Source of the DNA: Candidatus Bipolaricaulis sibiricus
GTDB lineage: Bacteria > Bipolaricaulota > Bipolaricaulia > Bipolaricaulales > Bipolaricaulaceae
Reading direction: 5' to 3'
NCBI GenBank assembly: GCA_004102645.1
Contig: CP034928.1
Location: forward strand, 992,001-1,056,000
Length of the DNA stretch: 64,000 nucleotides
Shown in pieces: positions 89-29,424 of this stretch. The position numbers and the translations under genes were made by a program. Below the pieces are notes generated by a model. It did not search any database. It was not told the DNA's origin and was given only the letters and a program-made list of their open reading frames with translations. Numbering within the stretch: position 1 is the stretch's first letter; every line of letters starts with the position of its first letter.

Positions 89-958
89 GTGCACCCAACT
101 GCCGCGGAGTTCCTGGCGTCGGCCGAGGAGACACTCCTTCGCGACGAGGGGCTTCACAACCTCATCCTCGGTCTGGCGTCCCGCGTCCGAGACGGCCGGT
201 CGTACGGGGACACCCCCCCGTACTTCCTGACCGTCGAGGAGAGAGGAGAGGTTCTCGTCGCCGCCGCCCGCACCCCACCCCATCCGCTCGTCCTCGCAGT
301 ACCGAGTGGGAACGCGACGGGGATCGAACTGCTTGTCGACCACCTCCTCGAGTCCGATCCTGACCTTCCCGGAGTCAACGGTCTCATCCCCCATGCGACG
401 GCGTTCGCCACGCTCTGGGCCGCGCGCAGGCCAGCGGCAGTGAAGGTGGCGATGGAGCTGCGAATACACGAGCTGCGGAAGGTGATCCCGCCCGCCGGGG
501 TGCCGGGGTTCCTGCGCCCAGCCCTGGATCGGGAGCGCGACCTCCTCGCGGAGTGGATTCAGGGATTCCAGGCCGAAGCCGTGCCTGACGATCCGCCCGT
601 TGACCCCTACGATATCCTGGATCGCTTCAGCGCCGCTCCGGCTACGCTTCGGGTGTGGGACCACGGAGGGCCAGTGTCGATGGCAGGAAGCTCCCGCGTC
701 TCGGCGCGTGGGGCGAGGGTGAGTCTCGTCTACACCCCTCCCGCGCACCGAGGACACGGATACGCATCGGCGTGCGTGGCCGGTCTGAGTCAGTTCCTCC
801 TCGATCAGGGGTACGCGTTCTGCACCCTGTACACCGATCTCGCCAATCCGGTCTCAAACAAGATCTACCACCGAATCGGCTATCGCCCGATTGGCGATGC
901 CGCAGTCTATCGCTTCTCCCCGCACTCGCAGCCCGCGCGGAAACCCGGCGGTCCGTAG
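89..958 (+). CDS. GNAT-family N-acetyltransferase
   Basis: A 289-residue protein with a GNAT fold in its C-terminal third. The region around residues 208-270 reads ARGARVSLVYTPPAHRGHGY followed by ACVAGLSQFLLDQG, which matches the acetyl-CoA pyrophosphate-binding motif (R-x-x-G-x-G/A), and then NKIYHRIGYRP, the usual C-terminal strand and helix of the family. The N-terminal 200 residues are a divergent region typical of two-lobed GNAT proteins. The start is GTG at 89. A GGAGAGG lies about 21 bases upstream, further than ideal, and a TATACT -10-like box lies at 25-30. The substrate is unknown. It is convergent with the downstream carboxypeptidase. Family is confident; acceptor cannot be inferred. 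Confidence 0.8.
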   Translation: MHPTAAEFLASAEETLLRDEGLHNLILGLASRVRDGRSYGDTPPYFLTVEERGEVLVAAARTPPHPLVLAVPSGNATGIELLVDHLLESDPDLPGVNGLIPHATAFATLWAARRPAAVKVAMELRIHELRKVIPPAGVPGFLRPALDRERDLLAEWIQGFQAEAVPDDPPVDPYDILDRFSAAPATLRVWDHGGPVSMAGSSRVSARGARVSLVYTPPAHRGHGYASACVAGLSQFLLDQGYAFCTLYTDLANPVSNKIYHRIGYRPIGDAAVYRFSPHSQPARKPGGP

Positions 959-1115
959 ACCTGCCGGGCGCAGCTGTGTCGTCGGCTACCCATGATCCGC
1001 TGTCGGTGCGGGATCGTTCGACTACGGAACACGGACAGCAGGCCCCGGTTCTTCCCGCGGGGGATCCGGACCTCTGTCCTGGGCCGACAGCTGAGGCGCG
1101 CTCTCAGCCAGGCCG

Positions 1116-2609
1116 TTAGCGCGTGTCTCCACCTGTCGAGGCGGCAATGAAGCCGCGCACGTCCTCGCGAAACGCCGCGAGCGACGGGAGATCGAGGTAG
1201 AACATGTGACCGGCTTCATAGCACTCCATCTCGAGGTTCCCGCGGAACGCCGGGTCCACGTTCATGTGGGACAGCATGTACTCCGTGGCGAAGACCGGGG
1301 TGGCCAGGTCATAGTAACCCTGCGCTACGAGAACCTTGGTGTACGGATTCTTGGCGATCGCGCCCCGCAGGGTCTCGCCGGTGGCTGGCATGTGGCCCTT
1401 CTCCCACTCCCACTTCTCGTTCACGGTGCGGCTGAGGGTTTCGTAGGTGAGGTCGGTCTCGATCCCCAGCTCGCTGCGGACGTACTGGTTGAACGCCGCG
1501 GTGTAGGGCGGGGTGATGGCAAGCATGGATGGATCGAACTCTGGGCGCTCCGTGACCGCGAGAGCCTCCACCCCCTTGAACCGCGAGTCGAGCCGGCCCA
1601 CGCTCCGCCGCTCGCCGCGGAGGAGTTCCTTGCAGAAGCGGTGGATCTCGACCCGGAGGTTTGTCCCGAGGATGTAGTCGAGGCTCAGCCCCGTGTACCG
1701 CGCAAGCCTCTTCCCGACCGAGCGGCGTTCCGCGTCGGTGAGGCGATCGCCCTTCATCAGCGCCAGGGTGAAGTCCCCCTCCGCCCATGCCTTCACTTCG
1801 GCGACAAGGTCGGGCAGGGCGCGCTTCTGGAGGTCGCCCGCCAGTCGGCCGTGGTACCACGCCGTGGCGGCGTAGGAAGGGACGAACAACTGGTACGGAA
1901 GATCGTTCGCGGGCATGAACCGAATCGCCGCGAGGTCCAACACCGTGGAGATGAGCACGATTCCGTTGAACGCGATACCCCGGTCCACGAGATGGCCAGC
2001 CAGACCCGCAGCACGCGTTGTACCGTAGCTCTCACCTGCCAAGAACAGCGGTGACGTCCACCTCCTGTAGCGGGTGAGGTAGAGGCGGATGAACTCCCCC
2101 ATCGACTCGATGTCACCCTTGAAGCTCCAGAACTTCTTGTCGAAGTCTTCCTTTGCCGCCCGGCTGAACCCCGTGCCGACCGGGTCAACGAACACGAGGT
2201 CGGTCTGATCGAGCCAGGTGAAGGGGTTGCTCTCGTAGCGGTAGGGCGGTGCGGGCATCCATCCTTCCTTCTCCATCACGACCCGCTTGGGACCCAGTGC
2301 CCCCATGTGCAACCAGATCGAGGCAGATCCGGGTCCCCCGTTGAACGCAAACGTGAGCGGCCGCGCGGAACGATCCACCGCGCCATCGAGCTCGTACGCA
2401 GTGAAGAAGACCTCGGCCTCCACCTCATCGAACGGATCCTTGAGCGGAATCGCACCGGCCCGCGCTGTGTACGGGAGTGACTCGCCTCGCAGCTGAAGCA
2501 CGTGACGGGTCTCCGTCGGTTCGACCCCGAGGAGCTTGCGTCTCTTCTCCTTGGTCTCCGAAAGCTCGTTGGCCTTCTTCACCTCGGGCTTCGCCTTCTC
2601 ATCTGCCAT
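1116..2609 (-). CDS. serine carboxypeptidase-like protein (peptidase family S10)
   Basis: A 497-residue alpha/beta-hydrolase-fold peptidase. FNGGPGSASIW at about 89-99 is the S10 oxyanion region. The catalytic Ser is in GESYGTTRA (about Ser194), the Asp in AQGYYDLATP (about 434) and the His in EAGHMFYLD (about 468), so the triad looks complete. The family removes C-terminal residues from peptides at acidic pH. No signal peptide is visible: the N-terminus is charged and lysine-rich, so a cytoplasmic role is likely. I chose the ATG at 2609 because a GAGGAGGAGGAG ribosome-binding site sits just upstream; the open frame runs further but without homology. A TACAAT box lies at 2649-2644. Bacterial S10 members are usually annotated only as peptidases, so the natural substrate is unknown. 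Confidence 0.85.
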   Translation of the reverse strand: MADEKAKPEVKKANELSETKEKRRKLLGVEPTETRHVLQLRGESLPYTARAGAIPLKDPFDEVEAEVFFTAYELDGAVDRSARPLTFAFNGGPGSASIWLHMGALGPKRVVMEKEGWMPAPPYRYESNPFTWLDQTDLVFVDPVGTGFSRAAKEDFDKKFWSFKGDIESMGEFIRLYLTRYRRWTSPLFLAGESYGTTRAAGLAGHLVDRGIAFNGIVLISTVLDLAAIRFMPANDLPYQLFVPSYAATAWYHGRLAGDLQKRALPDLVAEVKAWAEGDFTLALMKGDRLTDAERRSVGKRLARYTGLSLDYILGTNLRVEIHRFCKELLRGERRSVGRLDSRFKGVEALAVTERPEFDPSMLAITPPYTAAFNQYVRSELGIETDLTYETLSRTVNEKWEWEKGHMPATGETLRGAIAKNPYTKVLVAQGYYDLATPVFATEYMLSHMNVDPAFRGNLEMECYEAGHMFYLDLPSLAAFREDVRGFIAASTGGDTR

Positions 2610-3358
2610 CTCTGTTCTCCTCCTCCTCGTAGGTGAAGGCTCCATTGTACCGGTGACAGCAGACGGCACGGCCGGCCACGGCCCGTCCTTCCGTTGTGGT
2701 CGCTGCGCCACAGTCCGGCAGCAGGTTGCCGAACGACGCAATCGACGTTGCCAACACACGTGGCACTCCTCGGCTTGGTCGAGGGACTCCTGCCTCAGGA
2801 GCCCAGTGAAATCCTGCTCCTCGCCCGGCACGAAGACCGCTCGCCCCGTGGATGGCCAACATCCTTGGTGCGGGACGGGTTCGCTTCGGACACGGGGCGC
2901 GACAACGCCAGAGCCATGCACATTCGAGCCCATCCTGAGGTCGATTCTGTCGTGCTCCTGGCGCGCGGGGCGGACGCAGGTTACCTCCGCGCCGCCAGCA
3001 CTGCGGTCGAGGCGCCGGGCCGGGAGGGGCACGACCCGTGGAACTGGGGCGCGGGCCTCAGCGTGGCTGCCGACGCGCCTGGGGCCTGGCTGCCCCGGGA
3101 TCATGGTCGTTCAGATCGAGCCGACCACGGTGCAGATCAACGTCCCAGGCCCCCAGGCGAGGATGAACTGCTGAATGGCCTGATTCATCCAGCGACAAGC
3201 GTTCGACGATCATCTTCGGGCAGGTCGGGCCGACCGTGGGGCCGGACCTCCACCGAGGAGAAACCCCTGGGCCCGAGCTCGGACTCGCGCTCCCCAACCC
3301 GCGCCGGGATCCGTCGCACAGGGGTCACGTGGGATCACCGCGATCCCAACGGATGACC
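2610..3358. other. 750-base gap with no gene I can support
   Basis: The part near 2610-2650 holds the ribosome-binding site and TACAAT promoter box of the minus-strand carboxypeptidase. Several frames are open across the rest, including a 220-codon plus-strand frame at 2694-3356 and an upstream extension of the carboxypeptidase frame. Their translations are Arg/Pro/Gly-rich with no recognisable domain. A 25-codon hydrophobic minus-strand ORF (MNQAIQQF...) lies near 3150 but has no clear ribosome-binding site. This may be a decayed region. Confidence 0.4.
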
Positions 3359-3364
3359 TACACT
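3359..3364 (+). promoter_or_regulatory. -10 box (TACACT) of the diguanylate cyclase gene
   Basis: TACACT ends eight bases before the ATG at 3373 and there is no Shine-Dalgarno sequence, so the mRNA is predicted to be leaderless or nearly so. Confidence 0.5.
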
Positions 3365-3372
3365 GCCCACAG

Positions 3373-5016
3373 ATGACCTGGCAGTGGACGGCCCCTTCGA
3401 GCGTGCTCCTCGCCACAGCGCTGCTCGCGCTGTCCGTGGCGAGCGCCCTGCTCCGGCGCCGGATGGTTCCCGGAGCGTCGGTGCTCGGGATGGCGATGCT
3501 CAGTGGGGCGTGGTGGTCGCTCGCCGCCTGCCTGGAGGCCACCGCTGTGCCTCTGGGAGCGAAAGTCCTGTTCTCGACCCTCGAGTACGTCGGCTCAGGA
3601 AACATGGCCACGCTGTTCCTGGTGTTCGCACTTCGGTACACGGGTCGGATAGCGCGGCCGTTCGGGTCTCGGCTAGCCTTGCTCTGGGCCCTCCCGGTGG
3701 TCGCGGTCTCCGTTGCTGCAACAAACGAGCTCCACCACCAGTTGTGGGTCGGGTTCAGCGAGGGTCCGGCGGGGTCCAACAGCGTGATCTACCACCACGG
3801 GCCGGCCTTCTTCGGCATCCTTGTTCTGATCTATGCGTACACCTCTATCGCCGCGTACGTGCTCGTCACGGCCACGGTGGGGGCGTCAGCTGTTCAGCGA
3901 CGTCAGTCCGCGACCATCCTCATCGCCATCGCGTTCCCGGTGATCGGGAGCGCCCTCTACGCCCTTGGCGTCACCCCCGCGCCCGGGTTGAATCTCTCGC
4001 CGCTCAGTTTCGTAGCCACCGGAGCCACCCTCGCGATCGGCGTCATCCCCCTGCGCCTGTTCAACCTGGTCCCCGTAGCGCGCGAAGCGCTTCTGCAGGC
4101 GATGAGCGATGCAGTTCTTGTCCTCGACTCGGCTCAGCGGGTGGTGGACTTCAACCCGGCAGCCGTGCGCCTGCTCGGCTTGAGGTCGGACAGCATCGGG
4201 AGCGAGGCCTCTCGGGGACTGACGTTGGGGCCGAGACTCGCACCGTTCATCGTCCCCGATCGCGAGTCGCACATCGAGCTCACCGTGTCCGAGAATCCGT
4301 TGCTGCACCTCGACGTACGCGTGACGCCCCTGCGGAGGAAGGCCGGCCAGGCCGCGGGGGCGCTCATCGTCGCCCGCGACATCTCTGCCCGTCTTCGTGC
4401 CGAGCGACTGCTGCAGGACGCTCATGAGCGCCTTCAGGGTCAGCTCAGGGAGATCGAACGCTTGCAGGCAGAGCTTCGCGAGCAAGCGATCCGCGACGAG
4501 CTGACCGGATTGTTCACCCGTCGCTACCTCGGTGAGGAGCTGCCGCGGATCATCGAGCGAGCATCCATCGACCGGGCACCGGTGTCCGTGATCATGTTCG
4601 ACATCGACCACTTCAAGCTGGCCAACGACGCGCATGGTCACCGCACGGGGGACGCGCTGCTCGTCGCACTGGCGAAGCTCCTTGCGCGCTCGTCCCGGCC
4701 CGGGGACATCGCCTCCCGACTTGGTGGGGACGAGTTCGTGCTCGTCTTGCCCGGGACACCCCTCGAGGTCGCGGAGCAGCGCGCCGAGGACATCCGCCGG
4801 GACTTCCGCCGCGCGCCGATCCCCGAGCACGGTCTGACCGAGCGACCGACCGTGTCAGCCGGAGTCGCCGAGTTCCCGACGCATGGTCAGACGTGGCAGG
4901 ATCTCCTCCACGCCGCTGATGAGACGCTGTACAGGGCGAAGAACGCGGGGCGTGACCGCACACGGTCGGCGGTCTCAGACGCCATAGGGCAGAACCCATC
5001 GCGACCTCGCGCCTAG
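3373..5016 (+). CDS. membrane-bound diguanylate cyclase (7TM-PAS-GGDEF)
   Basis: A 547-residue protein predicted to make cyclic di-GMP from two GTP at the inner face of the membrane. Residues 1 to about 225 are strongly hydrophobic with about seven membrane segments, resembling the N-terminal 7TM sensor of some histidine kinases. Residues about 235-335 form a PAS domain (LLQAMSDAVLVLDS, FNPAAVRLLG). A short coiled linker (about 340-372) leads into the GGDEF domain from RDELTGLFTRRYLG on. The active-site GGDEF is intact at about 451-455. The upstream RPGD forms an RxxD inhibitory I-site with the expected spacing, so product inhibition is likely. No EAL domain is present. Its likely start is the ATG eight bases after a TACACT box. 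It is convergent with the glycosylase pseudogene. Confidence 0.88.
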   Translation: MTWQWTAPSSVLLATALLALSVASALLRRRMVPGASVLGMAMLSGAWWSLAACLEATAVPLGAKVLFSTLEYVGSGNMATLFLVFALRYTGRIARPFGSRLALLWALPVVAVSVAATNELHHQLWVGFSEGPAGSNSVIYHHGPAFFGILVLIYAYTSIAAYVLVTATVGASAVQRRQSATILIAIAFPVIGSALYALGVTPAPGLNLSPLSFVATGATLAIGVIPLRLFNLVPVAREALLQAMSDAVLVLDSAQRVVDFNPAAVRLLGLRSDSIGSEASRGLTLGPRLAPFIVPDRESHIELTVSENPLLHLDVRVTPLRRKAGQAAGALIVARDISARLRAERLLQDAHERLQGQLREIERLQAELREQAIRDELTGLFTRRYLGEELPRIIERASIDRAPVSVIMFDIDHFKLANDAHGHRTGDALLVALAKLLARSSRPGDIASRLGGDEFVLVLPGTPLEVAEQRAEDIRRDFRRAPIPEHGLTERPTVSAGVAEFPTHGQTWQDLLHAADETLYRAKNAGRDRTRSAVSDAIGQNPSRPRA

Positions 5017-5234
5017 TGGCGGCCCGCCAGGGAGCCCGAGGTCTGAGGCCCCGGCGACACGGGCCGGCGGCACCGATCTTCGTGACCCGCCACGCGTGCT
5101 TCGCTGCCCGTGCAGGAGTCGTTCGGTCCGCGGAGGATCGAGGAGGCACCGCGGTGGTTGTCGCAGAGATCCTGCCGTCCCCGAGGGGCCGAGGAGTTCC
5201 CGCGTCCACCCCTCGCCTGGGCTGCCAGGCCGCC

Positions 5235-5925
5235 GCGGGTTGGCACTGCGAACAGACGCAGCTCCTCGTGCTCCCCACGCGGAGTTCATCGTTCGCTGTG
5301 TCACAGCGCGGGCCGGGCGCCCGGCCCGGTAGCCGATCTGAAGGTGGTCCGCGTAGCGGCCTCCGACCCCACCCATCACGCTCCCCCGGTCCCCCACCGC
5401 ACCGGATGCGCTCCTCGAGCACGTGGCCCGCTGCGCGATGGAGCCGAACCACGTCTGCCGGGGAGAGGTCCCGCGCCGGGGTACGGGGGTGGAGTCCGGC
5501 GTGCCACAGGGTGTCCTGCACGTACGCGCTCCCCACCCCAGCCACGAAGCTCGGGTCAAGAAGGAAGCGCCGGAGCGCCCCCAGCGCTCTCGGCGTGAAC
5601 GCTGGATCGAGAGGATCCGGTCCCCGCTTCCGCAACTGGGGATGTAGCGGCAGATCGCCTCCCGAAACGAGACGGACATACCCGAACCACCAGAAGTGGA
5701 CCCACAGCTGGTCACGTTCGGCGAATCGGAACACGACCCTCTTCTGAGTGGGGTCCGGCTGTTCGTCAGCCGAGCAAAACCGTACCTCTCCCCCATTCCG
5801 AGGCTCACCCCCACGGTGTCTCCCCGCTGAAGATCGAACAGGGCCCACTTCTCACGCGGCCGAACCCCGACGATCGTCTGCCCCATCACTGTGCTCGCGA
5901 CCGTGGGCGGAGGCAGGTTGAGGCA
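5235..5925 (-). pseudogene. decayed formamidopyrimidine-DNA glycosylase (Fpg/Nei family)
   Basis: Pieces of an Fpg/MutM-type base-excision glycosylase are spread over two frames. In order: TIVGVRPREKWALFDL and SLGMG in one frame; then, after a run of five G near 5785, RVVFRF, FGYVRLV, RKRGPDPLDP and FVAGVGSAYVQDTLWHAGLHP (the helix-two-turn-helix region) in another; then GRYADHLQIGYRAGRP back in the first; and finally the zinc-finger remnant PRCDT...VGSTRSCVCSQCQ in the second. At least three frameshifts are needed. The N-terminal MPELPE start with its catalytic Pro/Glu is gone (the equivalent stretch reads LNLPPP) and the first zinc-finger cysteine is missing. Two shifts fall at G runs, so some could be assembly errors, but the missing residues argue for true decay. 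Confidence 0.75.
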
Positions 5926-6022
5926 CTTGGGCTAGGCGACCTCTACCCCGGTGATCTCCTGTCCCGCCACCGCCCGATCGCAGCTCGGGCCCAGACCACG
6001 AGGTCGGGAACCTCGGGCACGG

Positions 6023-7063
6023 CTATTGCCGAGCTGCGACGTAGGCCAGCGCCCTGTCCACTGGCAGCTGCCACAGGGTGATCGTGTTGTACAGGCGAAA
6101 CCCCAGCTCGTGGTTGATCTTCAGCATCGGGGCGTTCGAGTTCGCATTCCCGGTCCGCACGAACTTGACCTGCGGCCGCCCAGCGAGCACTCGGGCGAGC
6201 ATCGCCGCCTTCAGCCACCGGCCCAACCCGTGATTGCGGAACTCCGGAAACACGCCCGTCCCCCACTGATGGAGAATCTCTGGCTCGCTCGAATCCCATC
6301 CGACCTCGGTGAAACCAGCGATGCGTCCAGTGGGACGGTGTCGAACGTAGATCGTCCACCGCTCCACACCGCGCTTGCGCAGAGACTCCTCTTGGTCGCG
6401 AATCACGGCCGGAGTCCAGTGGAAGTCCTCCATCTCTAGGCTCCCGCGGGGCGCGGTGTTCATCACCTCGTGCATCTTCACCACGTCGGCTAGGTCCGGC
6501 TCCGGGTAGGGCCCCTCCCAGACCCCAAGGTAGAACTCATCCTCAGGGGCACGCCGCTGCCACGCCTGGAGAAGCGTCGGGTCCACGTCGGCGATGCGCA
6601 GTTGGTTGATGTTCTGGGTCAAGCCAGGTGTCGCGCCCAGCCGGCGTGCGAACGCCTCTCCCGCGGGGGCATTGAGAGCTGTGCCCCAGGTGAGAAGCCG
6701 ACGGCCATCGTTCTGAGCTGCCGTGGCCACCGTTCCGAGAAGCGCTGCGCCGATGCCCCGGCGCCGGTGATCGGGATCGACGTAGACGTCACACCAGGCG
6801 TGGTGACGGTTCTCTGACATCTGGCTTAGCTCGACCTCGGCCCCTCCCACGACCCGGCCGTGCCGCCACGCCGCCCACCACCGCAGGCCCCAGACCGGCG
6901 GCACGGAGGTCATCATGGTCTTCAGGACCGCGAGCGAGCGCGGCGGATCGTCCGGCCACCATTCCGCACGGACCCGGTTGGAAAGCGCGTGGTACCCCCG
7001 CCAAGCGTCAGACCGTGCGACCGCAGGGTCAAACTGCTCGATCCAGATCTCTGATCGTGACAT
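6023..7063 (-). CDS. tandem-GNAT acetyltransferase (two GNAT domains)
   Basis: A 346-residue protein with two GNAT domains. The first has VYVDPDHRRRGIGAALL (about residues 92-108), a canonical acetyl-CoA-binding R-R-x-G-I-G motif. The second has TGVFPEFRNHGLGRWLKAAM (about 268-287), followed by FVRTGNANSNAPMLKINHELGF, the typical C-terminal strand. Tandem GNATs of this layout include mycothiol synthase-like and antibiotic-modifying enzymes, but nothing here fixes the substrate. The start is the ATG at 7063, preceded by AGGAGGGG six bases upstream. A TATGAT box at 7096-7091 probably gives the promoter. The longer open frame upstream to 7453 has no domain. Confidence 0.85.
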   Translation of the reverse strand: MSRSEIWIEQFDPAVARSDAWRGYHALSNRVRAEWWPDDPPRSLAVLKTMMTSVPPVWGLRWWAAWRHGRVVGGAEVELSQMSENRHHAWCDVYVDPDHRRRGIGAALLGTVATAAQNDGRRLLTWGTALNAPAGEAFARRLGATPGLTQNINQLRIADVDPTLLQAWQRRAPEDEFYLGVWEGPYPEPDLADVVKMHEVMNTAPRGSLEMEDFHWTPAVIRDQEESLRKRGVERWTIYVRHRPTGRIAGFTEVGWDSSEPEILHQWGTGVFPEFRNHGLGRWLKAAMLARVLAGRPQVKFVRTGNANSNAPMLKINHELGFRLYNTITLWQLPVDRALAYVAARQ

Positions 7064-23515: not shown

Positions 23516-25549
23516 GTGGCCCAACCTGATCTGCGCTGGCTCGATGATCTCAATCCCGCTCAGCGGGAGGCCGTTGCCCACGGCGATGGCCCGCTCCTCG
23601 TCATCGCTGGCGCAGGCACGGGCAAGACCCGCACCCTTGCCTACCGTGTGGCGTACCTCATCGCCCAGGGTGTCCCCCCCGATCGGCTGCTCCTCCTCAC
23701 CTTCACCCGCCGCGCTGCCGAGGAGATGCTGTCCCGGGCAGCAGGGGTCGTGCGTCACCTCGGCCCGATTCGAGAGCGGGTCTGGGGGGGAACGTTCCAC
23801 GCTACCGCGAACCGTCTCCTCCGCATCCATGCCGCCCGGGCTGGCCTGAGCCCGGAATTCACCGTGCTCGACCAGGGCGATGCCGAGAACCTGATCGGTC
23901 TCCTGCGTCACGATCTTGGCCTCGCCCCGCGTGACAGACGATTCCCCCGCAGGTCGACCTGTCTCGCCATCTACTCGCGCACTGTGAACGGCGCGGAGTC
24001 CCTCCCCGAGGTCCTCGCGCAGCACTTCCCGTGGGTCGCGGGGTGGGAGAACGAGCTCAAGACCCTGTTCCGATCGTATGTCGAGAGGAAGCAGAAGCTC
24101 AACGTGCTCGACTTCGACGACCTCCTCCTCTACTGGAACGAGATCCTGTCCGACCCCAGCGTCGCCCGGGAGCTTTCTGGCCAGTTCGAGCATGTCCTCG
24201 TCGACGAGTATCAGGACACGAACCGCGTCCAAGCGCAGATCCTGCGCGGGATGCGGACCGGTAACGACAACGTGACTGTGGTGGGGGACGATGCACAGAG
24301 CATCTACCGGTTCCGCGCGGCGACGGTGCGGAACATCCTTGACTTCCCGAAGGAGTTCCCCGGCACGCGCATCGTGACCCTTGAGGAGAACTACCGGTCC
24401 ACGATGCCGGTGCTCGCGACGGCGAACGCGGTCATCGCCCAGGCGCGGGAGCGGTACACGAAGAACCTCTGGTCCAGCCGCACCACCGGCCCGAGGCCGC
24501 TTCTCGTCACCTGTCCAGACGAGGCGAGCCAGGACGCCTATGTGATCGAACGGGTGCTTGCCCTGTACGAACAGGGAATCCCTCTGCGGAAACAGGCGGT
24601 CCTGTTCCGCGCTGCCCACCACTCGGCGTCCCTCGAGGTCGAGCTGTCGCGGCGGGAGATCCCGTTTCACAAGTTCGGAGGCTTGCGGTTCTTGGAGGCC
24701 GCGCATGTCAAAGATGCGCTCGCGTTCTTGCGGGTCGCGGAGAACCCGCGGGACGAACTGGCCTGGTTCCGCATCCTGCAGCTCTTCGACGGCGTGGGCC
24801 CGGCAAACATTGCCCGAGCGCTCGCGCACGTGGCCCACGAGCACCACGACCCGCGGTCGATCGCCTCGTTTGCGGGACCCTCCGGGTCCCGTGATGACCT
24901 GGTCCGACTTGGGCGCCTGTTCACGGAGCTGGGCAGCGGCCTCCCCGTCCCCGCCCAGGTGGAGCGAGTACGACGGTTCTACGAACCGTACGTCGAGAAG
25001 CTCTACGACTACCCCCAGGCGCGGGTTCGAGATCTGGAAAGCCTCGAGCAGATCGCGTCAGCGTATCGGTCGCGGCGGAGCTTCCTCGCCGACCTGCAGC
25101 TCGACCCACCGAGCTCGACGAGCGACCTCGCTGGCCCGCCCCACAAGGACGACGACTGGCTTGTCCTCTCGACGATCCATTCCGCCAAAGGGGGCGAGTG
25201 GGACGCGGTGTACCTGATCCACGCTGCGGATGGGTTCCTCCCTTCAGATCTCGCCACTGGATCCCAGGACGAAATCGAGGAGGAGCTGCGCCTCACGTAC
25301 GTCGCCCTGACCCGGGCCAAGACGCACCTCACCGTGATCTGGCCGCTGCGCTACCACTACCGGCGTCGAGAGCTTGCCGACGGCCACGGGTTCGCCCAGC
25401 TGTGCCGGTTCTTCACCGAGGAGGTCCGGGGGACGATGGAGCGGGTCACCGCCGGGGCCGCCCCTCTTCCGGGAGGGCAGCCGGGGAGCGGAGCCGGGCG
25501 GGAGCCGCGACTGGATGTGGCCCGCGCCGTCCGCGCGCGGTGGGAGTAG
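23516..25549 (+). CDS. UvrD/PcrA-like superfamily 1A DNA helicase
   Basis: A 677-residue 3'-5' helicase. LNPAQREAV is the Q motif, GAGTGKT (about 32-38) is motif I, LTFTRRAAEEM motif Ia, VDEYQDTN motif II, VVGDDAQSIYRFRAA motif III, LEENYRS motif IV, VLSTIHSAKGGEWDAVYL motif V and EEELRLTYVALTRAK motif VI. All are intact. At 677 residues it is a little shorter than UvrD/PcrA (720) and lacks a clear C-terminal RNA-polymerase-binding extension. Roles would be nucleotide-excision or replication-fork repair. It is convergent with dinB, one base separating the stops. The GTG start has no Shine-Dalgarno but a -10 box six bases upstream. Confidence 0.92.
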   Translation: MAQPDLRWLDDLNPAQREAVAHGDGPLLVIAGAGTGKTRTLAYRVAYLIAQGVPPDRLLLLTFTRRAAEEMLSRAAGVVRHLGPIRERVWGGTFHATANRLLRIHAARAGLSPEFTVLDQGDAENLIGLLRHDLGLAPRDRRFPRRSTCLAIYSRTVNGAESLPEVLAQHFPWVAGWENELKTLFRSYVERKQKLNVLDFDDLLLYWNEILSDPSVARELSGQFEHVLVDEYQDTNRVQAQILRGMRTGNDNVTVVGDDAQSIYRFRAATVRNILDFPKEFPGTRIVTLEENYRSTMPVLATANAVIAQARERYTKNLWSSRTTGPRPLLVTCPDEASQDAYVIERVLALYEQGIPLRKQAVLFRAAHHSASLEVELSRREIPFHKFGGLRFLEAAHVKDALAFLRVAENPRDELAWFRILQLFDGVGPANIARALAHVAHEHHDPRSIASFAGPSGSRDDLVRLGRLFTELGSGLPVPAQVERVRRFYEPYVEKLYDYPQARVRDLESLEQIASAYRSRRSFLADLQLDPPSSTSDLAGPPHKDDDWLVLSTIHSAKGGEWDAVYLIHAADGFLPSDLATGSQDEIEEELRLTYVALTRAKTHLTVIWPLRYHYRRRELADGHGFAQLCRFFTEEVRGTMERVTAGAAPLPGGQPGSGAGREPRLDVARAVRARWE

Positions 25550-25550
25550 C

Positions 25551-26792
25551 TCACGCCCCGTTGCGCCGGCAGGTGAGGGCGATCTCCTTTTGGCGGCCCA
25601 TTCCGCCTGTTGCCATGGTGAGGATTCGACACGCGTACACGGTCCCCCTACCCACCGCGCCCTCTCCGTACCGGTTCCGAATCCGATCGCAGGCAAGGGC
25701 GAGCCGCTCCCGGCGACCTTCCTCGGGGAACAGGGGGCGGGGGGTCATCACCTTGGGCTGAAGGTCGTCCACCCTCACCCCGACCAACGTCGTCTCGTCG
25801 GGGAACCCACCGTGATCCTTGATCAGGTCAAGAGTGGTCTGGAAGATCGTGTCCTCATCATCGGTTGGCACCTCGAGTGCCCGCTGGGCACCAGCGTACC
25901 TCATTCCAGCGTCGCGGAGCCCGTAGTGGATGACCCGACCCACGAACCCCTTCGCCCGCAGCCGGCGTGCAGTTCGGTCGCACAGGTAGAGGAGTACACT
26001 CCGCGCCCCGTCGGGGTGGCGGAGGGCCCGCGGGATCGCGTGGGAATGGCCGATGCTCTTGACCTCATCTTCTTGCCAGTACGGGAGAAGGGGGTTGGGA
26101 TCCAACCCCTGTCCCCACAGCGACAACACTGATCCCTGAACCCCGAACGCATGTTTGAGGCGTGCCGGTGGGTACCGACCGAGATCGGCAAGGGTGCGGA
26201 TCCCCATCATCTCTAGCCGCTTCGCGATCCGTGGCCCGATCCCACACACCGCACCAACCGGGGTTTCCGCAAGAACCGCCGGAACTTCCTCGGGGACAAT
26301 CCACGCTACGCCGCCGGGCTTGGCCTTCTCCACGGCGAGCTTGGCAAGCATCTTGTTCGGAGCAATTCCCACCGAACAGGTAATCCACTGTCCCAGTTCA
26401 GCCCGCAACTCGTCCTGGATCCGCCGCGCCAGCGCGAGGGGTCCTCCGTGGCGGGGCGCTTCCTGGGTCACATCAAGGAATACCTCGTCGATCGAGTACA
26501 CCTCGACCATTGGCGTGTAGCGGATGAGGATCTCCACAAACCGCCGGGTAACCGTTTCGTACTTGTCGGGATCCCCGGGGACGAACACAACGTGCGGGCA
26601 GAGCCTGGCCGCCTCCCAGGTGGTCATTCCGGACCGGACCCCATACCGCTTGGCCTCACGGGATGCCGCCGCGACAACCGAGTGGATGTCCGGCCGGCCG
26701 GAGACGACGATCGGTTTTCCCCGTAGGCGGGGGTTGGCCTGTTGCTCCACCGAGGCGAAGTAGGAATCCATGTCGAGATGGAGGATGATCAC
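25551..26792 (-). CDS. dinB: DNA polymerase IV (Y-family)
   Basis: A 413-residue translesion polymerase. ILHLDMDSYFASVEQQ carries the first catalytic Asp, YSIDEVFLDVT the Asp-Glu pair, CSVGIAPNKMLAKLA the fingers/palm junction, and VCGIGPRIAKRLEMMGI the helix-hairpin-helix thumb. The little-finger domain follows. There is no clear C-terminal beta-clamp QLxLF motif, though the tail is short and basic. It is the last gene of a five-gene operon and overlaps the small upstream ORF by four bases (GTGA). Start is GTG 26792 with GAGGAGGG just upstream. The palindrome-covered promoter 280 bases upstream would give it damage- or ligand-responsive control. Confidence 0.92.
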   Translation of the reverse strand: MIILHLDMDSYFASVEQQANPRLRGKPIVVSGRPDIHSVVAAASREAKRYGVRSGMTTWEAARLCPHVVFVPGDPDKYETVTRRFVEILIRYTPMVEVYSIDEVFLDVTQEAPRHGGPLALARRIQDELRAELGQWITCSVGIAPNKMLAKLAVEKAKPGGVAWIVPEEVPAVLAETPVGAVCGIGPRIAKRLEMMGIRTLADLGRYPPARLKHAFGVQGSVLSLWGQGLDPNPLLPYWQEDEVKSIGHSHAIPRALRHPDGARSVLLYLCDRTARRLRAKGFVGRVIHYGLRDAGMRYAGAQRALEVPTDDEDTIFQTTLDLIKDHGGFPDETTLVGVRVDDLQPKVMTPRPLFPEEGRRERLALACDRIRNRYGEGAVGRGTVYACRILTMATGGMGRQKEIALTCRRNGA

Positions 26793-27049
26793 GGTCCCTC
26801 CTCGTCGAGGATCCCGTCCACATACCATCGGGCGTGCTCGGGATCGAACCGGAGCTCAACCACGGTCCCCCCCACGGTGAGGGAGTAGACGAGGTATCGA
26901 ATCGCCCCCTCCCGCCGTTCGTGAACCAGGTGGACCTCCTCGACGGGATACCGTTGCCCACGCCAGTGCACCCACCGCGGAATGGGGTACAGCTTGCGGG
27001 CGGGGAACACGACTCCGACGTCGACCGCTTCGTGGATGTGGTGAAGCAT
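26789..27049 (-). CDS. small DUF6504-like protein preceding dinB
   Basis: An 86-residue protein: PRWVHWRGQRYPVEEVHLVH followed by YLVYSLTVGGTVVELRFDP and ARWYVDGILDEEGP. The W-R-G-x-x-Y/W-x-V-E-E-V pattern and the beta-strand layout match small proteins found beside Y-family polymerases in other bacteria (DUF6504 type); the link to dinB is therefore known at the level of neighbourhood, not function. ATG 27049 has GAGAGG seven bases upstream; a TTG at 27067 lies inside the -10 box and is unlikely. It overlaps dinB by four bases, implying coupled synthesis. Confidence 0.6.
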   Translation of the reverse strand: MLHHIHEAVDVGVVFPARKLYPIPRWVHWRGQRYPVEEVHLVHERREGAIRYLVYSLTVGGTVVELRFDPEHARWYVDGILDEEGP

Positions 27050-27058
27050 CGTCTGCCT

Positions 27059-27085
27059 CTCGGTCAAGCGTAACCCTTGACCGAG
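27059..27085 (-). promoter_or_regulatory. perfect 10-bp inverted repeat (operator candidate)
   Basis: CTCGGTCAAG, seven-base spacer, CTTGACCGAG. It covers the -10 box and part of the spacer of the promoter for the small ORF and dinB. Further half-sites (TCGGTCAAG at 27088-27096; GACCGAG at 27107-27113) lie upstream. In RNA it would also form a hairpin just before the ribosome-binding site. Confidence 0.6.
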
Positions 27086-27095
27086 CGTCGGTCAA
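27067..27095 (-). promoter_or_regulatory. internal promoter for the DUF6504-like gene and dinB
   Basis: Minus strand TTGACC (27095-27090), 17-base spacer, TACGCT (27072-27067). The -35 falls in one GGTCAAG half-site and the -10 inside the palindrome at 27059-27085, so a protein bound there would block polymerase. Confidence 0.55.
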
Positions 27096-27658
27096 GGATC
27101 TTGGTCGACCGAGACGAGGGACCGGGCGAAGTGCTGGAGCCCGCCCACCGGACGGGCTTGGGAGATCACGTGAATCAAGCGGAGTTCGGCAAGCTGAGCG
27201 ATTCGCGTCGCCGCGGCACGGGGCGATACCCCGAACGCCTGGGCAAGGTCTCCGCTCGTTGCCTCGCCGTGGGCAATGATCCACTGCAGACTCTCCGCGA
27301 GGTACCGGGGCAGACGGCCGAGAAGAACACAACCCTTGCCGTCCACCATCGCGAGCAGGGCGAGTTTTCGCTGGACGAGTTTCGCTGCCAGGTCGTCGAG
27401 AAGGTCCTCCCGCGGCGCGCGCATGACAAGATATCGGCCAGGAAGCTCGCCGGTCACAAGCCGGGCTACCGGCTCGACAAGTGCCTCGTCGGCAAACGAC
27501 CCGCTCAGAACCTCGATCCCGGAGAGATCGGCGGCGAGGATCCCCCCCTCCGGCAGAGAGGCGAGCTCCTGCCACAATGCCTTCTGCGCCGCGCGGCCCT
27601 CACCACGGGTGCCGACCCGCGTTCCGAACTGGGCGAAGAGGATGGTCCGCGTCTTCAT
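27092..27658 (-). CDS. STAS-like (DUF4325-type) protein with C-terminal winged HTH
   Basis: A 188-residue protein. The N-terminal part (LWQELASLPEGGILAADLSG, then EVLSGSFADEALVEPVARL) matches the DUF4325 STAS-like fold, where a D-x-S-G...S-x-S-F-A-D motif takes the place of the anti-sigma-antagonist site. The C-terminal 70 residues (AESLQWIIAHGEATSGDLAQ, then AFGVSPRAAATRIAQLAELRL) form a helix-turn-helix/winged-helix domain. DUF4325 proteins usually accompany a GHKL ATPase, as here. The role inferred is a partner-switching regulator that also binds DNA; the repeats around its own stop codon are a possible target. ATG 27658 has no Shine-Dalgarno; a TACGAT box ends ten bases upstream. Confidence 0.65.
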   Translation of the reverse strand: MKTRTILFAQFGTRVGTRGEGRAAQKALWQELASLPEGGILAADLSGIEVLSGSFADEALVEPVARLVTGELPGRYLVMRAPREDLLDDLAAKLVQRKLALLAMVDGKGCVLLGRLPRYLAESLQWIIAHGEATSGDLAQAFGVSPRAAATRIAQLAELRLIHVISQARPVGGLQHFARSLVSVDQDP

Positions 27659-27706
27659 TGGCCCACCGATCGTAGCGGGAGGCGTCCCGGCTGCCCAGCG
27701 TGAGTC

Positions 27707-28579
27707 TCATTCGTTCCCATCGTTGCCCCCTGGCTCGAACAGGGCTCGGGGGAGCCGGATCGAGATCTGGACACCAGGGAACGGAGCAACCATCCCCGCC
27801 GACCACTCGACGTCCTCCTGCAACAACGCCCCGCTCCCGGACCGAACGTAGAACCGACCCGAGCTTGCTACCACCGCCTCGCGGATACGGCGCAGAGCCC
27901 CTCCCCGCCCTGGATCGTCGAACCGCGACGCACCGTCCACCAGAGCCGCCTCCAGTGCCTGTGCCGCGTCCAGCCCAGCGTACCGTGGGTTGAGCCCAAG
28001 GCTCCCGGCGAGCCCGATCCCCTTGTCGCCAATCGCAAGGTGAAGATGGTCGTGATCTTCCTCCAATGCGGCGAGCCCAAACGGGTCGACGTCACGCGTG
28101 GGCGACGCGTGGTGGGGAATGTTCTGGAGAAGCTCGATCACAGCCCCAACGAGAAGGCGGTTCGCCTTCTCTCCGAACGGAAACCGTCGCTCGAGTCGCT
28201 CCCCGACTGCGTCCGCGATCGGGCGGACACTGCCCTCGTCGTGAACACGCACCGCAGCAACCTCGGGGTCCGTCGACAGGTCCGGAGGCAGTGGAGTGTC
28301 CGTCCAGTACGATCCCGCTAGGTAGTGGAACAGACCTGACCTCGCGAGGCGATCCCGAATCCGGACGCCCGCCGGGAGGAGTACCCGCATCTTCCCGCCC
28401 GCCTCGAGGCACCGCCGTCCGTAGAGAATGAGCACGAGCAGGCCGAACGGGTCGAACCGGGTGAGACGGGAGAGATCGACGAGCGGGCGAGGGAACCCCG
28501 CCTCCCACGCCGGCAGTTCCCGCTCAACGGTCAGAACGTCCAGCCGACGGGGCGCGCGGAATGGAATGGCCTGGCTCAT
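27707..28579 (-). CDS. STAS-like domain fused to a GHKL ATPase domain
   Basis: A 290-residue protein. Residues 1-100 (VERELPAWEAGFPRPLVDLS, FGLLVLILYGRR) look like a STAS or STAS-like fold. Residues about 125-285 have the Bergerat ATP-binding fold of anti-sigma kinases and histidine kinases: ELLQNIPHHA (N box), LAIGDKGIGL (G1) and GRGGALRRIREAV (G2). There is no phosphoacceptor His domain. STAS and anti-sigma kinase domains are normally separate partners; fusion in one chain next to a DUF4325 partner is unusual. The ATG overlaps the DUF72 stop by four bases. It probably signals to the downstream STAS-HTH protein. Confidence 0.6.
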   Translation of the reverse strand: MSQAIPFRAPRRLDVLTVERELPAWEAGFPRPLVDLSRLTRFDPFGLLVLILYGRRCLEAGGKMRVLLPAGVRIRDRLARSGLFHYLAGSYWTDTPLPPDLSTDPEVAAVRVHDEGSVRPIADAVGERLERRFPFGEKANRLLVGAVIELLQNIPHHASPTRDVDPFGLAALEEDHDHLHLAIGDKGIGLAGSLGLNPRYAGLDAAQALEAALVDGASRFDDPGRGGALRRIREAVVASSGRFYVRSGSGALLQEDVEWSAGMVAPFPGVQISIRLPRALFEPGGNDGNE

Positions 28580-29424
28580 CCAAACAGGGGATCCCTTGTC
28601 GCATCCCACGGGGGAACATAGTCCGGGCCGCGCAGGTGGAGCTGTCGAAGGAGTTTCACCGCGTCGCGAACGCTCTTCCCCATGTGGCAGTTGTTCATGA
28701 ACACGAACGTCGTCCGAGATTCGCGCGCCACCCGCTCGATCGTCGGCACCCACTCCGCAAGCTCCGCGTTGGAGTACGCGTAGTCGTACCGCTGGCTCGC
28801 CGTCGCGTGCTGCCACCACTGGGCCGCGTTCCGGCCGTGGAACCGGAAGTACCCGATTCCGTTCGTGACGATTCCCGTCTTCTCCTGGGGGAGGTTGGGA
28901 AGCGGAGGGAGGTCTACGTTCACGAACCCGAGGCCGTGGTCGCGGAGGAACGCGTAGACCTCCTGCCTGTACCAGTGCGCGTGGCGGAACTCGACATGGA
29001 CGGGAATCTCCGCCGGGATCGCCGTACGCAGTTTCTCGAGATGGCCGAATGCGTCCTCACCCTCCCGCGGGAGGGAGTACGGGAACTGGGCGAGCAGCGC
29101 CCCCAAGCATCCCCCATCCCGAAGGGGCTCGATGCCCGCAAGAAACGGGGCCACGGTCTCGTCGAACTTGCCCCGATCGTGGGTCATCTCCCCCGGCACC
29201 TTCACCACGAACACGAACTTCGTGGGGTCCACTTTGCGCACCAGAGCAGCGGTCATGTGCGGGGACGGGACGCGGTAGTAGGTCGAGTTGATCTCGACAG
29301 CATCGAACTCCCGGGCGTAGTAGGAGAGCCACTCCTTGGAGGGCAGGGTCGTGGGGTAGATCGGCCCAACCCAGTCCCGGTAGCTGTACCCGGACGTCCC
29401 AACCCGTAGAGTCCCTGTGCCCAT
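28576..29424 (-). CDS. DUF72 family protein (YecE-like TIM barrel)
   Basis: A 282-residue protein with the DUF72 signature VGTSGYSYRDWVGPIYP at the start, YYAREFDAVEINSTYYRVP, FVFVVKVPGEMTHDR, LLAQFPYSL, VHVEFRHAHWY and YFRFHGRN, all in the expected order. The TIM-barrel family is widespread but its activity is unsettled. It is the first gene of the operon ending in dinB, and a TATAAT box ends six bases before the ATG with no Shine-Dalgarno, so the transcript should be leaderless. Confidence 0.85.
   Translation of the reverse strand: MGTGTLRVGTSGYSYRDWVGPIYPTTLPSKEWLSYYAREFDAVEINSTYYRVPSPHMTAALVRKVDPTKFVFVVKVPGEMTHDRGKFDETVAPFLAGIEPLRDGGCLGALLAQFPYSLPREGEDAFGHLEKLRTAIPAEIPVHVEFRHAHWYRQEVYAFLRDHGLGFVNVDLPPLPNLPQEKTGIVTNGIGYFRFHGRNAAQWWQHATASQRYDYAYSNAELAEWVPTIERVARESRTTFVFMNNCHMGKSVRDAVKLLRQLHLRGPDYVPPWDATRDPLFG

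What the first reader, a model, noticed from the sequence alone, without database searches (positions are those of the whole stretch)
27092..28579. STAS-ATPase fusion with a DUF4325-HTH partner, operonic with Pol IV
Seen: an N-terminal STAS-like domain fused to a GHKL ATPase, followed by a DUF4325-type protein that carries its own winged HTH, all between DUF72 and dinB. Known: STAS proteins and GHKL anti-sigma kinases normally act as separate partners. Inference: a compact switch whose output is direct DNA binding rather than sigma release, controlling translesion synthesis.
Basis: partly seen in the sequence, partly recalled or inferred. Interest (0 to 1): 0.65.

Follow-up and report, generated by a model that had tools for sequence, protein, structure and literature searches.

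The report
CapKS-type switch controlling Pol IV
In a group of bacteria that lack LexA, the usual master repressor of the DNA-damage (SOS) response, a kinase-plus-repressor gene pair related to the recently described CapK/CapS damage switch sits where LexA sits in their relatives, in front of an error-prone DNA polymerase, and very probably switches it on when DNA is damaged.

Summary
P0001 (27707-28579, minus strand) is a STAS-GHKL fusion and P0002 (27092-27658, minus) is a STAS-like (DUF4325-type) protein with a winged HTH, between DUF72 and dinB. P0002 matches the crystal structures of CapS (9z72/9z73, 9z71). With CapK it forms a DNA-damage-activated kinase/repressor pair that, in the 2026 paper describing it, controls immune operons. 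The CapS phosphoserine (S54) is invariant in 28/28 homologues and the GHKL N-box in 27/27. A palindrome covers the -10 of the P0003-dinB promoter. Its half-site drifts between relatives while symmetry is kept, and in family f2 it has the E. roggenkampii layout (wide TTCA-N10-TGAA, narrow TTCA-N1-TGAA). In the window's genome the wide motif occurs only here. Over the 100 held genomes of the phylum, capS and LexA never co-occur. In LexA-bearing families lexA occupies the same slot (lexA-P0003-dinB), and both kinds of linked DinB form one clade apart from housekeeping DinB. Best reading: a CapKS-like pair replaced LexA as switch of a translesion-synthesis cassette. Induction by DNA damage is inferred; the CapK ssDNA-binding tryptophan is not conserved.

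The parts
28576..29424 (-). DUF72 gene (PF01904), directly upstream; its stop overlaps the P0001 start (ATGA)
   Evidence: Pfam 9.5e-61; DUF72 also lies beside the dinB cassette in other relatives, including the lexA type L090
27707..28579 (-). P0001, CapK-like kinase: N-terminal STAS + C-terminal GHKL ATPase, 290 aa; N-box E149/N153, G1 box D185-x-G187-x-G189
   Evidence: Er CapK E214/N218 equivalents invariant in 27/27 homologues
27092..27658 (-). P0002, CapS-like repressor: STAS-like (DUF4325-type) domain + winged HTH, 188 aa; predicted phosphoserine S54
   Evidence: S54 aligns with E. roggenkampii CapS S54 and is invariant in 28/28
27059..27085 (-). operator O1, 27-bp perfect palindrome CTCGGTCAAG-ggttacg-CTTGACCGAG over the -10 of the P0003-dinB promoter
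27088..27112 (-). operator O2, second copy of the palindrome (2 mismatches), overlapping the P0002 stop codon and the -35
   Evidence: sequence
27067..27095 (-). putative sigma-70 promoter of P0003-dinB: TTGACC (27090-27095) - 17 nt - TACGCT (27067-27072)
   Evidence: read from sequence; the generic scan did not report it; TACAAT/TACACT at the same place in family f2
26789..27049 (-). P0003, small beta-rich protein (86 aa from the ATG; TTG at 27067 possible): DUF6504-like, candidate standalone ImuB-C subunit
   Evidence: invariant P28, W35 and C-terminal W81 in 14/14; DUF6504 in 2 of 14 members
25551..26792 (-). P0004, DinB (DNA polymerase IV), 413 aa, SOS-type clade
   Evidence: Pfam IMS 3e-48 and IMS_C 1e-18; DinB tree

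Best explanation
P0001/P0002 are a chromosomal CapK/CapS-type switch dedicated to a translesion-synthesis cassette (P0003, a candidate ImuB-C subunit, plus DinB), standing in for LexA. Unphosphorylated P0002 dimer binds the two palindromes over the P0003-dinB promoter and blocks it (homology plus conserved operator). On DNA damage the STAS-GHKL kinase P0001 is activated and phosphorylates S54 of P0002, the dimer falls apart, the operator is freed and P0003 + Pol IV are made (inferred from CapKS). The switch took the place that lexA holds in sister families, once, in the lineage of families f1 and f2. Shown here: domains, invariant catalytic and acceptor residues, conserved operator, linkage, LexA absence and the lexA-occupied equivalent operon. 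Inferred: kinase activity, the damage/ssDNA signal, direction of the replacement.
For: Homology to CapS crystal structures and to the CapK/CapS layout. S54 28/28, N-box 27/27. Operator with compensating changes: 97-98% of arm pairs kept, 0/500 shuffles as high. Wide TTCA-N10-TGAA and narrow TTCAATGAA 13 bp before capS in 13 f2 loci, shuffles mean 0.03; E. roggenkampii-type plasmid DNA has TTAA-N10-TTAA twice (the first overlapping the capS stop, as O2 does here) and TTAA-N1-TTAA in the capK-capS gap. Only two wide sites in the 1.70 Mb genome, both here. SOS-type DinB in 34/100 phylum genomes: 25 carry capS, 7 an adjacent lexA, 2 neither. LexA over cut-off in 17 genomes, none with capS; no S24 peptidase at all in this genome. 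lexA-P0003-dinB in sister families with an SOS-box-like palindrome upstream of lexA in five. One DinB clade for both linkages, 99/99 support.
Against: The ssDNA-contacting W68 of E. roggenkampii CapK is not conserved (R in P0001) and its basic residues have no counterpart, so the signal may differ. CapK's N-terminal HTH is missing. CapS DNA-contact residues N145/K151 are not conserved. Absence of LexA and presence of capKS follow family lines, so they represent one or two events rather than many independent ones. In G062, G090 and G091 dinB lies on another contig; G078 has the DinB without capS or lexA. No expression data exist.
Confidence: 0.75

Rival explanations
1. P0001/P0002 repress P0003-dinB through the operator as described, but the kinase is driven by another signal (nucleotide or energy state, stationary phase, a partner protein) and not by DNA damage.
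For: W68 and the basic residues of the CapK ssDNA groove are not conserved; the CapK HTH is absent; STAS/GHKL partner switches generally serve varied signals (family knowledge).
Against: Every linked target found in families f1/f2 is a DNA-repair polymerase cassette. lexA occupies the same slot in relatives. Outside the phylum a P0002-like gene stands directly before a methylpurine-DNA glycosylase and a UvrD helicase-nuclease (G172) and near an SbcD-like nuclease (G313).
Confidence: 0.17
2. The pair is a passing immune-type (Cap) regulator that happens to lie beside dinB; dinB is not its target.
For: Published CapKS sit mostly beside immune operons (PMC13373217), and a related pair in another phylum (G119) brackets a methylase and neighbouring genes resembling a restriction system.
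Against: The operator lies on the P0003-dinB promoter and stays with P0003 when a gene is inserted (L029, L031). It also precedes P0003-dinB on contigs without capS (L103, L105). Inheritance follows the DinB tree. No hit of P0001 on plasmids or of P0002 in phages.
Confidence: 0.04
3. The palindromes are RNA hairpins (attenuator or terminator), not repressor sites.
For: Arms of 8-11 bp around a 7-nt loop in family f1 would fold in RNA.
Against: The loop is the -10 element, which is upstream of the transcription start. In f2 the conserved core is TTCA-N10-TGAA, the CapS wide spacing. No T-run terminator was found.
Confidence: 0.04

Closest known systems
CapK/CapS (Chambers et al. 2026, EMBO J, PMC13373217; PDB 9z71-9z73)
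   Same: Adjacent kinase + STAS-wHTH repressor genes; S54 acceptor and N-box; repressor sites as wide palindromes over the downstream -10 (and narrow ones before capS in family f2); second wide site at the capS stop codon
   Different: Target is a Pol IV cassette, not an immune operon; kinase lacks the N-terminal HTH; W68 not conserved; chromosomal and vertically inherited in LexA-less families; half-site differs
LexA-controlled lexA-imuB-C-polY cassettes (Geobacter type, PMC6511836; Aravind 2013, PMC3765255)
   Same: Repressor gene + small beta-rich protein + Y-family polymerase; the same P0003-DinB pair is under lexA in sister families of this phylum
   Different: LexA (RecA-stimulated self-cleavage) is replaced by a kinase and a phosphorylatable repressor
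VapKSC (PMC13373217)
   Same: HTH-less STAS-GHKL kinase with a STAS partner
   Different: VapS has no wHTH and inhibits the VapC toxin; no VapC here
SpoIIAB/SpoIIAA and RsbW/RsbV anti-sigma switches
   Same: GHKL kinase phosphorylating a Ser of a STAS protein
   Different: The STAS protein itself carries the DNA-binding domain; no sigma factor gene beside it
Other LexA-independent damage regulators (UmuDAb/DdrR of Acinetobacter PMC11332147; Deinococcus radiation response PMC8072749; DdiA of Myxococcus PMC12288472)
   Same: Damage-response control by something other than, or besides, LexA
   Different: No STAS/GHKL phosphorylation switch described in those (abstracts read only)

Membership tests
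CapK/CapS | capK immediately followed by capS | tested here: met
   48 nt apart in the window
CapK/CapS | CapS = STAS + C-terminal wHTH, homologous to 9z71/9z72 | tested here: met
   E 2e-7 (single), 4e-13 (profile)
CapK/CapS | conserved phosphoserine S54 in CapS STAS | tested here: met
   S in 28/28; P0002 S54
CapK/CapS | GHKL N-box (E214, N218) in CapK | tested here: met
   27/27; P0001 E149/N153
CapK/CapS | N-terminal HTH in CapK | tested here: not met
   P0001 starts at the STAS domain; also absent in the Bub-linked CapK of Sphingobium, and dispensable in E. roggenkampii (PMC13373217)
CapK/CapS | ssDNA-contacting W68 | tested here: not met
   R in P0001; W found only in E. roggenkampii-type and Sphingobium
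CapK/CapS | wide palindrome over the downstream promoter | tested here: met
CapK/CapS | narrow palindrome between capK and capS | tested here: inconclusive
   present in family f2 (13 exact of 16 loci), not in f1 including the window
CapK/CapS | located beside an immune operon | tested here: not met
   neighbours are DUF72, P0003, dinB
CapK/CapS | ssDNA-activated phosphorylation that releases the repressor | not testable with these tools
   needs biochemistry
LexA | wHTH + S24 self-cleaving peptidase | tested here: not met
   no TIGR00498 hit and no PF00717 hit in the genome
VapKSC | VapC toxin gene next to VapS; VapS without wHTH | tested here: not met
   P0002 has a wHTH; next gene is P0003
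SpoIIAB/SpoIIAA anti-sigma switch | single-domain STAS partner and a sigma factor as final target | tested here: not met
   P0002 carries its own wHTH; no sigma gene among the neighbours
standalone ImuB-C (for P0003) | beta-rich domain with conserved C-terminal Trp, beside dinB/lexA | tested here: inconclusive
   C-terminal W81 14/14 and context fit; no direct profile match made; weak DUF6504

The most novel reading that the evidence does not exclude
Two families of the phylum Bipolaricaulota run SOS-type mutagenesis without LexA or RecA-stimulated proteolysis: a CapKS-type ssDNA/damage kinase and its repressor displaced LexA from the lexA-ImuB-C-dinB cassette. CapKS-type pairs would then be general DNA-damage transcription switches, of which immune control is one branch.
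Probability: 0.6. Interest if true: 0.85.

Novelty: new variant of a known kind. Interest (0 to 1): 0.77.

Why it matters
How LexA-less bacteria control mutagenic polymerases is largely open. Here one lineage appears to have exchanged a protease-type repressor for a phosphorylation switch in front of an orthologous polymerase cassette. That makes the question testable with two small proteins and a 60-bp operator. It also moves CapK/CapS from an accessory of immune operons to a core DNA-damage regulator, and gives a natural experiment in rewiring of a stress response.

Tried and rejected
P0001 is not found on plasmids and P0002 not in phages. Near matches (3 mismatches) to the overlapping 3-bp-spacer pattern elsewhere in the genome were not pursued as targets. 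The LexA-like hit in G038 lies on a short GC-rich contig whose genes look Thermus-like, probably contamination (by eye). The generic promoter scan found nothing in the region. Anti-sigma control was considered and rejected because P0002 has its own DNA-binding domain. RNA-hairpin reading of the palindrome rejected because its centre is the -10. A search for papers linking Bipolaricaulota to the SOS response found none, and the CapKS paper does not mention dinB, LexA or SOS in its main text.

Full report
What is there. The window lies in a single-contig genome of 1.70 Mb (G000, window = C1:992001-1056000). The closest named relative found is a Candidatus Bipolaricaulota MAG with the same gene order. 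On the minus strand five genes follow each other: DUF72 (29424-28576), P0001 (28579-27707), P0002 (27658-27092), P0003 (27049-26789, or from a TTG at 27067) and dinB (26792-25551). DUF72 and P0001 overlap by ATGA, and P0003 and dinB overlap by GTGA, so the two groups are tightly packed; between P0002 and P0003 lies a promoter.

Domains. P0001 is STAS + GHKL: weak in Pfam on its own, clear as a family. P0002 is a STAS-like (DUF4325-type) domain plus a winged HTH. P0002's best solved relatives are 9z72/9z73 and 9z71, the CapS structures described by Chambers et al. 2026 (PMC13373217). There, CapK is an ssDNA-activated GHKL kinase, CapS a dimeric repressor, and phosphorylation of CapS S54 breaks the dimer and opens the downstream operon. 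Fetching a plasmid copy of the same proteins (WP_001567865/6) allowed residue-by-residue comparison. CapS S54 equals P0002 S54 and is Ser in 28/28 homologues; CapK E214/N218 equal P0001 E149/N153, invariant in 27/27. Not conserved: CapK W68 and the basic ssDNA residues, the N-terminal HTH of CapK, and CapS N145/K151.

Operator. Between P0002 and P0003 the minus strand reads TTGACC-17 nt-TACGCT with a perfect palindrome CTCGGTCAAG-ggttacg-CTTGACCGAG centred on the -10, and a second copy with two mismatches at the P0002 stop codon. A whole-genome scan (up to 3 mismatches) finds these two sites and no others, so the wide motif has one target locus in this genome. In relatives the palindrome stays at the same distance from P0003 while its sequence changes symmetrically (CTCGATAAAG..CTTTATCGAG, CTCGTCCAAG..CTTGGACGAG, TATCGTTCAG..CTGAACGATA). 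Counted as pairs, 97% (family f1) and 98% (f2) of arm positions remain complementary, with changes on both sides at four positions each, and no shuffle or slid register comes near. When another gene is inserted after capS (L029, L031) the palindrome stays with P0003, and it is also present before P0003-dinB on contigs without capS (L103, L105). Not every f2 genus keeps the upstream half-site. In f2 the core is TTCA-N10-TGAA, and TTCA-N1-TGAA stands 13 bp before the capS start in 13 of 16 loci (15 within one mismatch; shuffles 0.03). In some of these loci it also encodes the FNE end of CapK, in others (L019, L022, L036) it is intergenic. These are the two spacings shown for E. roggenkampii CapS (TTAA-N10-TTAA and TTAA-N1-TTAA), which I also read in the plasmid DNA, including a wide site at the capS stop codon.

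LexA. Of the 100 phylum genomes held, 17 have LexA over the cut-off, all in families f3, f4, f5, f6 and f8; capS of this type is in 26, all in f1 and f2 (plus one distant copy in f9); none has both. The window's complete genome has no LexA and no S24 peptidase. In f5 genomes the operon is lexA-P0003-dinB with TACTAAAC-N4-GTTTAGTA upstream of lexA; in G043 (f4) it is lexA - a gene whose sequence reads as recA - P0003 - dinB - DUF72; in G058 (f8) lexA - small ORF - dinB. A DinB tree puts all lexA-linked Bipolaricaulota DinB and all capKS-linked DinB in one clade (99/99) apart from a housekeeping DinB clade with neither neighbour; the capKS-linked ones form a clade within it (99/97), with G078's unlinked DinB and those on contigs without capS (L103, L105) inside. 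Of 34 genomes with this DinB type, 25 have capS, 7 an adjacent lexA, G014 has a capK piece at a contig end, and G078 has neither. This fits a replacement of LexA by a CapKS pair in the shared lineage of f1 and f2; since it follows family lines, it is one or two events, not a statistical sample. Members of f1/f2 without capKS mostly lack this DinB as well.

P0003. Its family has an invariant Trp near the C-terminus and weak DUF6504 matches. Small beta-rich standalone ImuB-C proteins with a conserved C-terminal Trp, encoded with dinB and lexA, are described (PMC3765255, PMC6511836). I consider P0003 a likely ImuB-C, unproven.

Outside the phylum. P0002-like genes occur in 9 of about 289 other genomes sampled. 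In G172 one stands directly before a methylpurine-DNA glycosylase and a UvrD-type helicase-nuclease; in G313 before a PHP-like protein and an SbcD-like nuclease; in G119 kinase and repressor bracket an AAA ATPase, an ORF without Pfam hit and a DNA methylase; in others the neighbours are not repair genes.

Mechanism, graded. Shown by sequence: domain make-up, invariant kinase and acceptor residues, a conserved operator over the dinB promoter, genetic linkage, absence of LexA, lexA in the same slot in sister families. Inferred from CapKS: P0002 dimer represses; P0001 phosphorylates S54; release induces P0003-dinB. Least certain: that ssDNA is the direct signal. Overall confidence 0.75. Novelty: a new variant of a known kind; the target, the LexA replacement and the housekeeping setting are what is new.

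Noticed in passing
L196 (G172:C7:18500-28000), 482-4770: Outside the phylum, an orphan STAS-wHTH gene directly precedes a methylpurine-DNA glycosylase and a UvrD-type helicase-PDDEXK nuclease; suggests CapS-like repressors govern other repair genes.
   Followed up: partly
L195 (G313:C120:36000-41147), 1846-4971: STAS-wHTH gene followed by a PHP-like protein and an SbcD-like metallophosphoesterase nuclease.
   Followed up: partly
L098 (G119:C7:1-12000), 152-6694: CapK-like and CapS-like genes bracket an AAA ATPase, an ORF without Pfam hit and an N6/N4 DNA methylase: an apparent restriction-type locus inside the pair.
   Followed up: partly
L197 and L198 (G235, G372): STAS-wHTH gene directly upstream of a large AAA ATPase, with an AraC-like gene upstream, conserved in two genomes of one genus.
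   Followed up: no
window 28576-29424; L090, L100, L160, L161: A DUF72 gene recurs beside the SOS-type dinB cassette in both lexA- and capKS-bearing relatives, on either side of it; role unknown.
   Followed up: no
G062:C175, G090:C122 (L159, L158) and L160, L161: capK-capS-P0003 without dinB behind it; dinB is on another contig with its own divergent P0003-like gene.
   Followed up: partly
G016 (L102, L103, L104): Two capKS copies and two P0003-dinB copies in one genome, possibly a duplication or a mixed bin.
   Followed up: no
window 23516-25549 (+): A UvrD-like helicase gene (by eye) converges on dinB.
   Followed up: no
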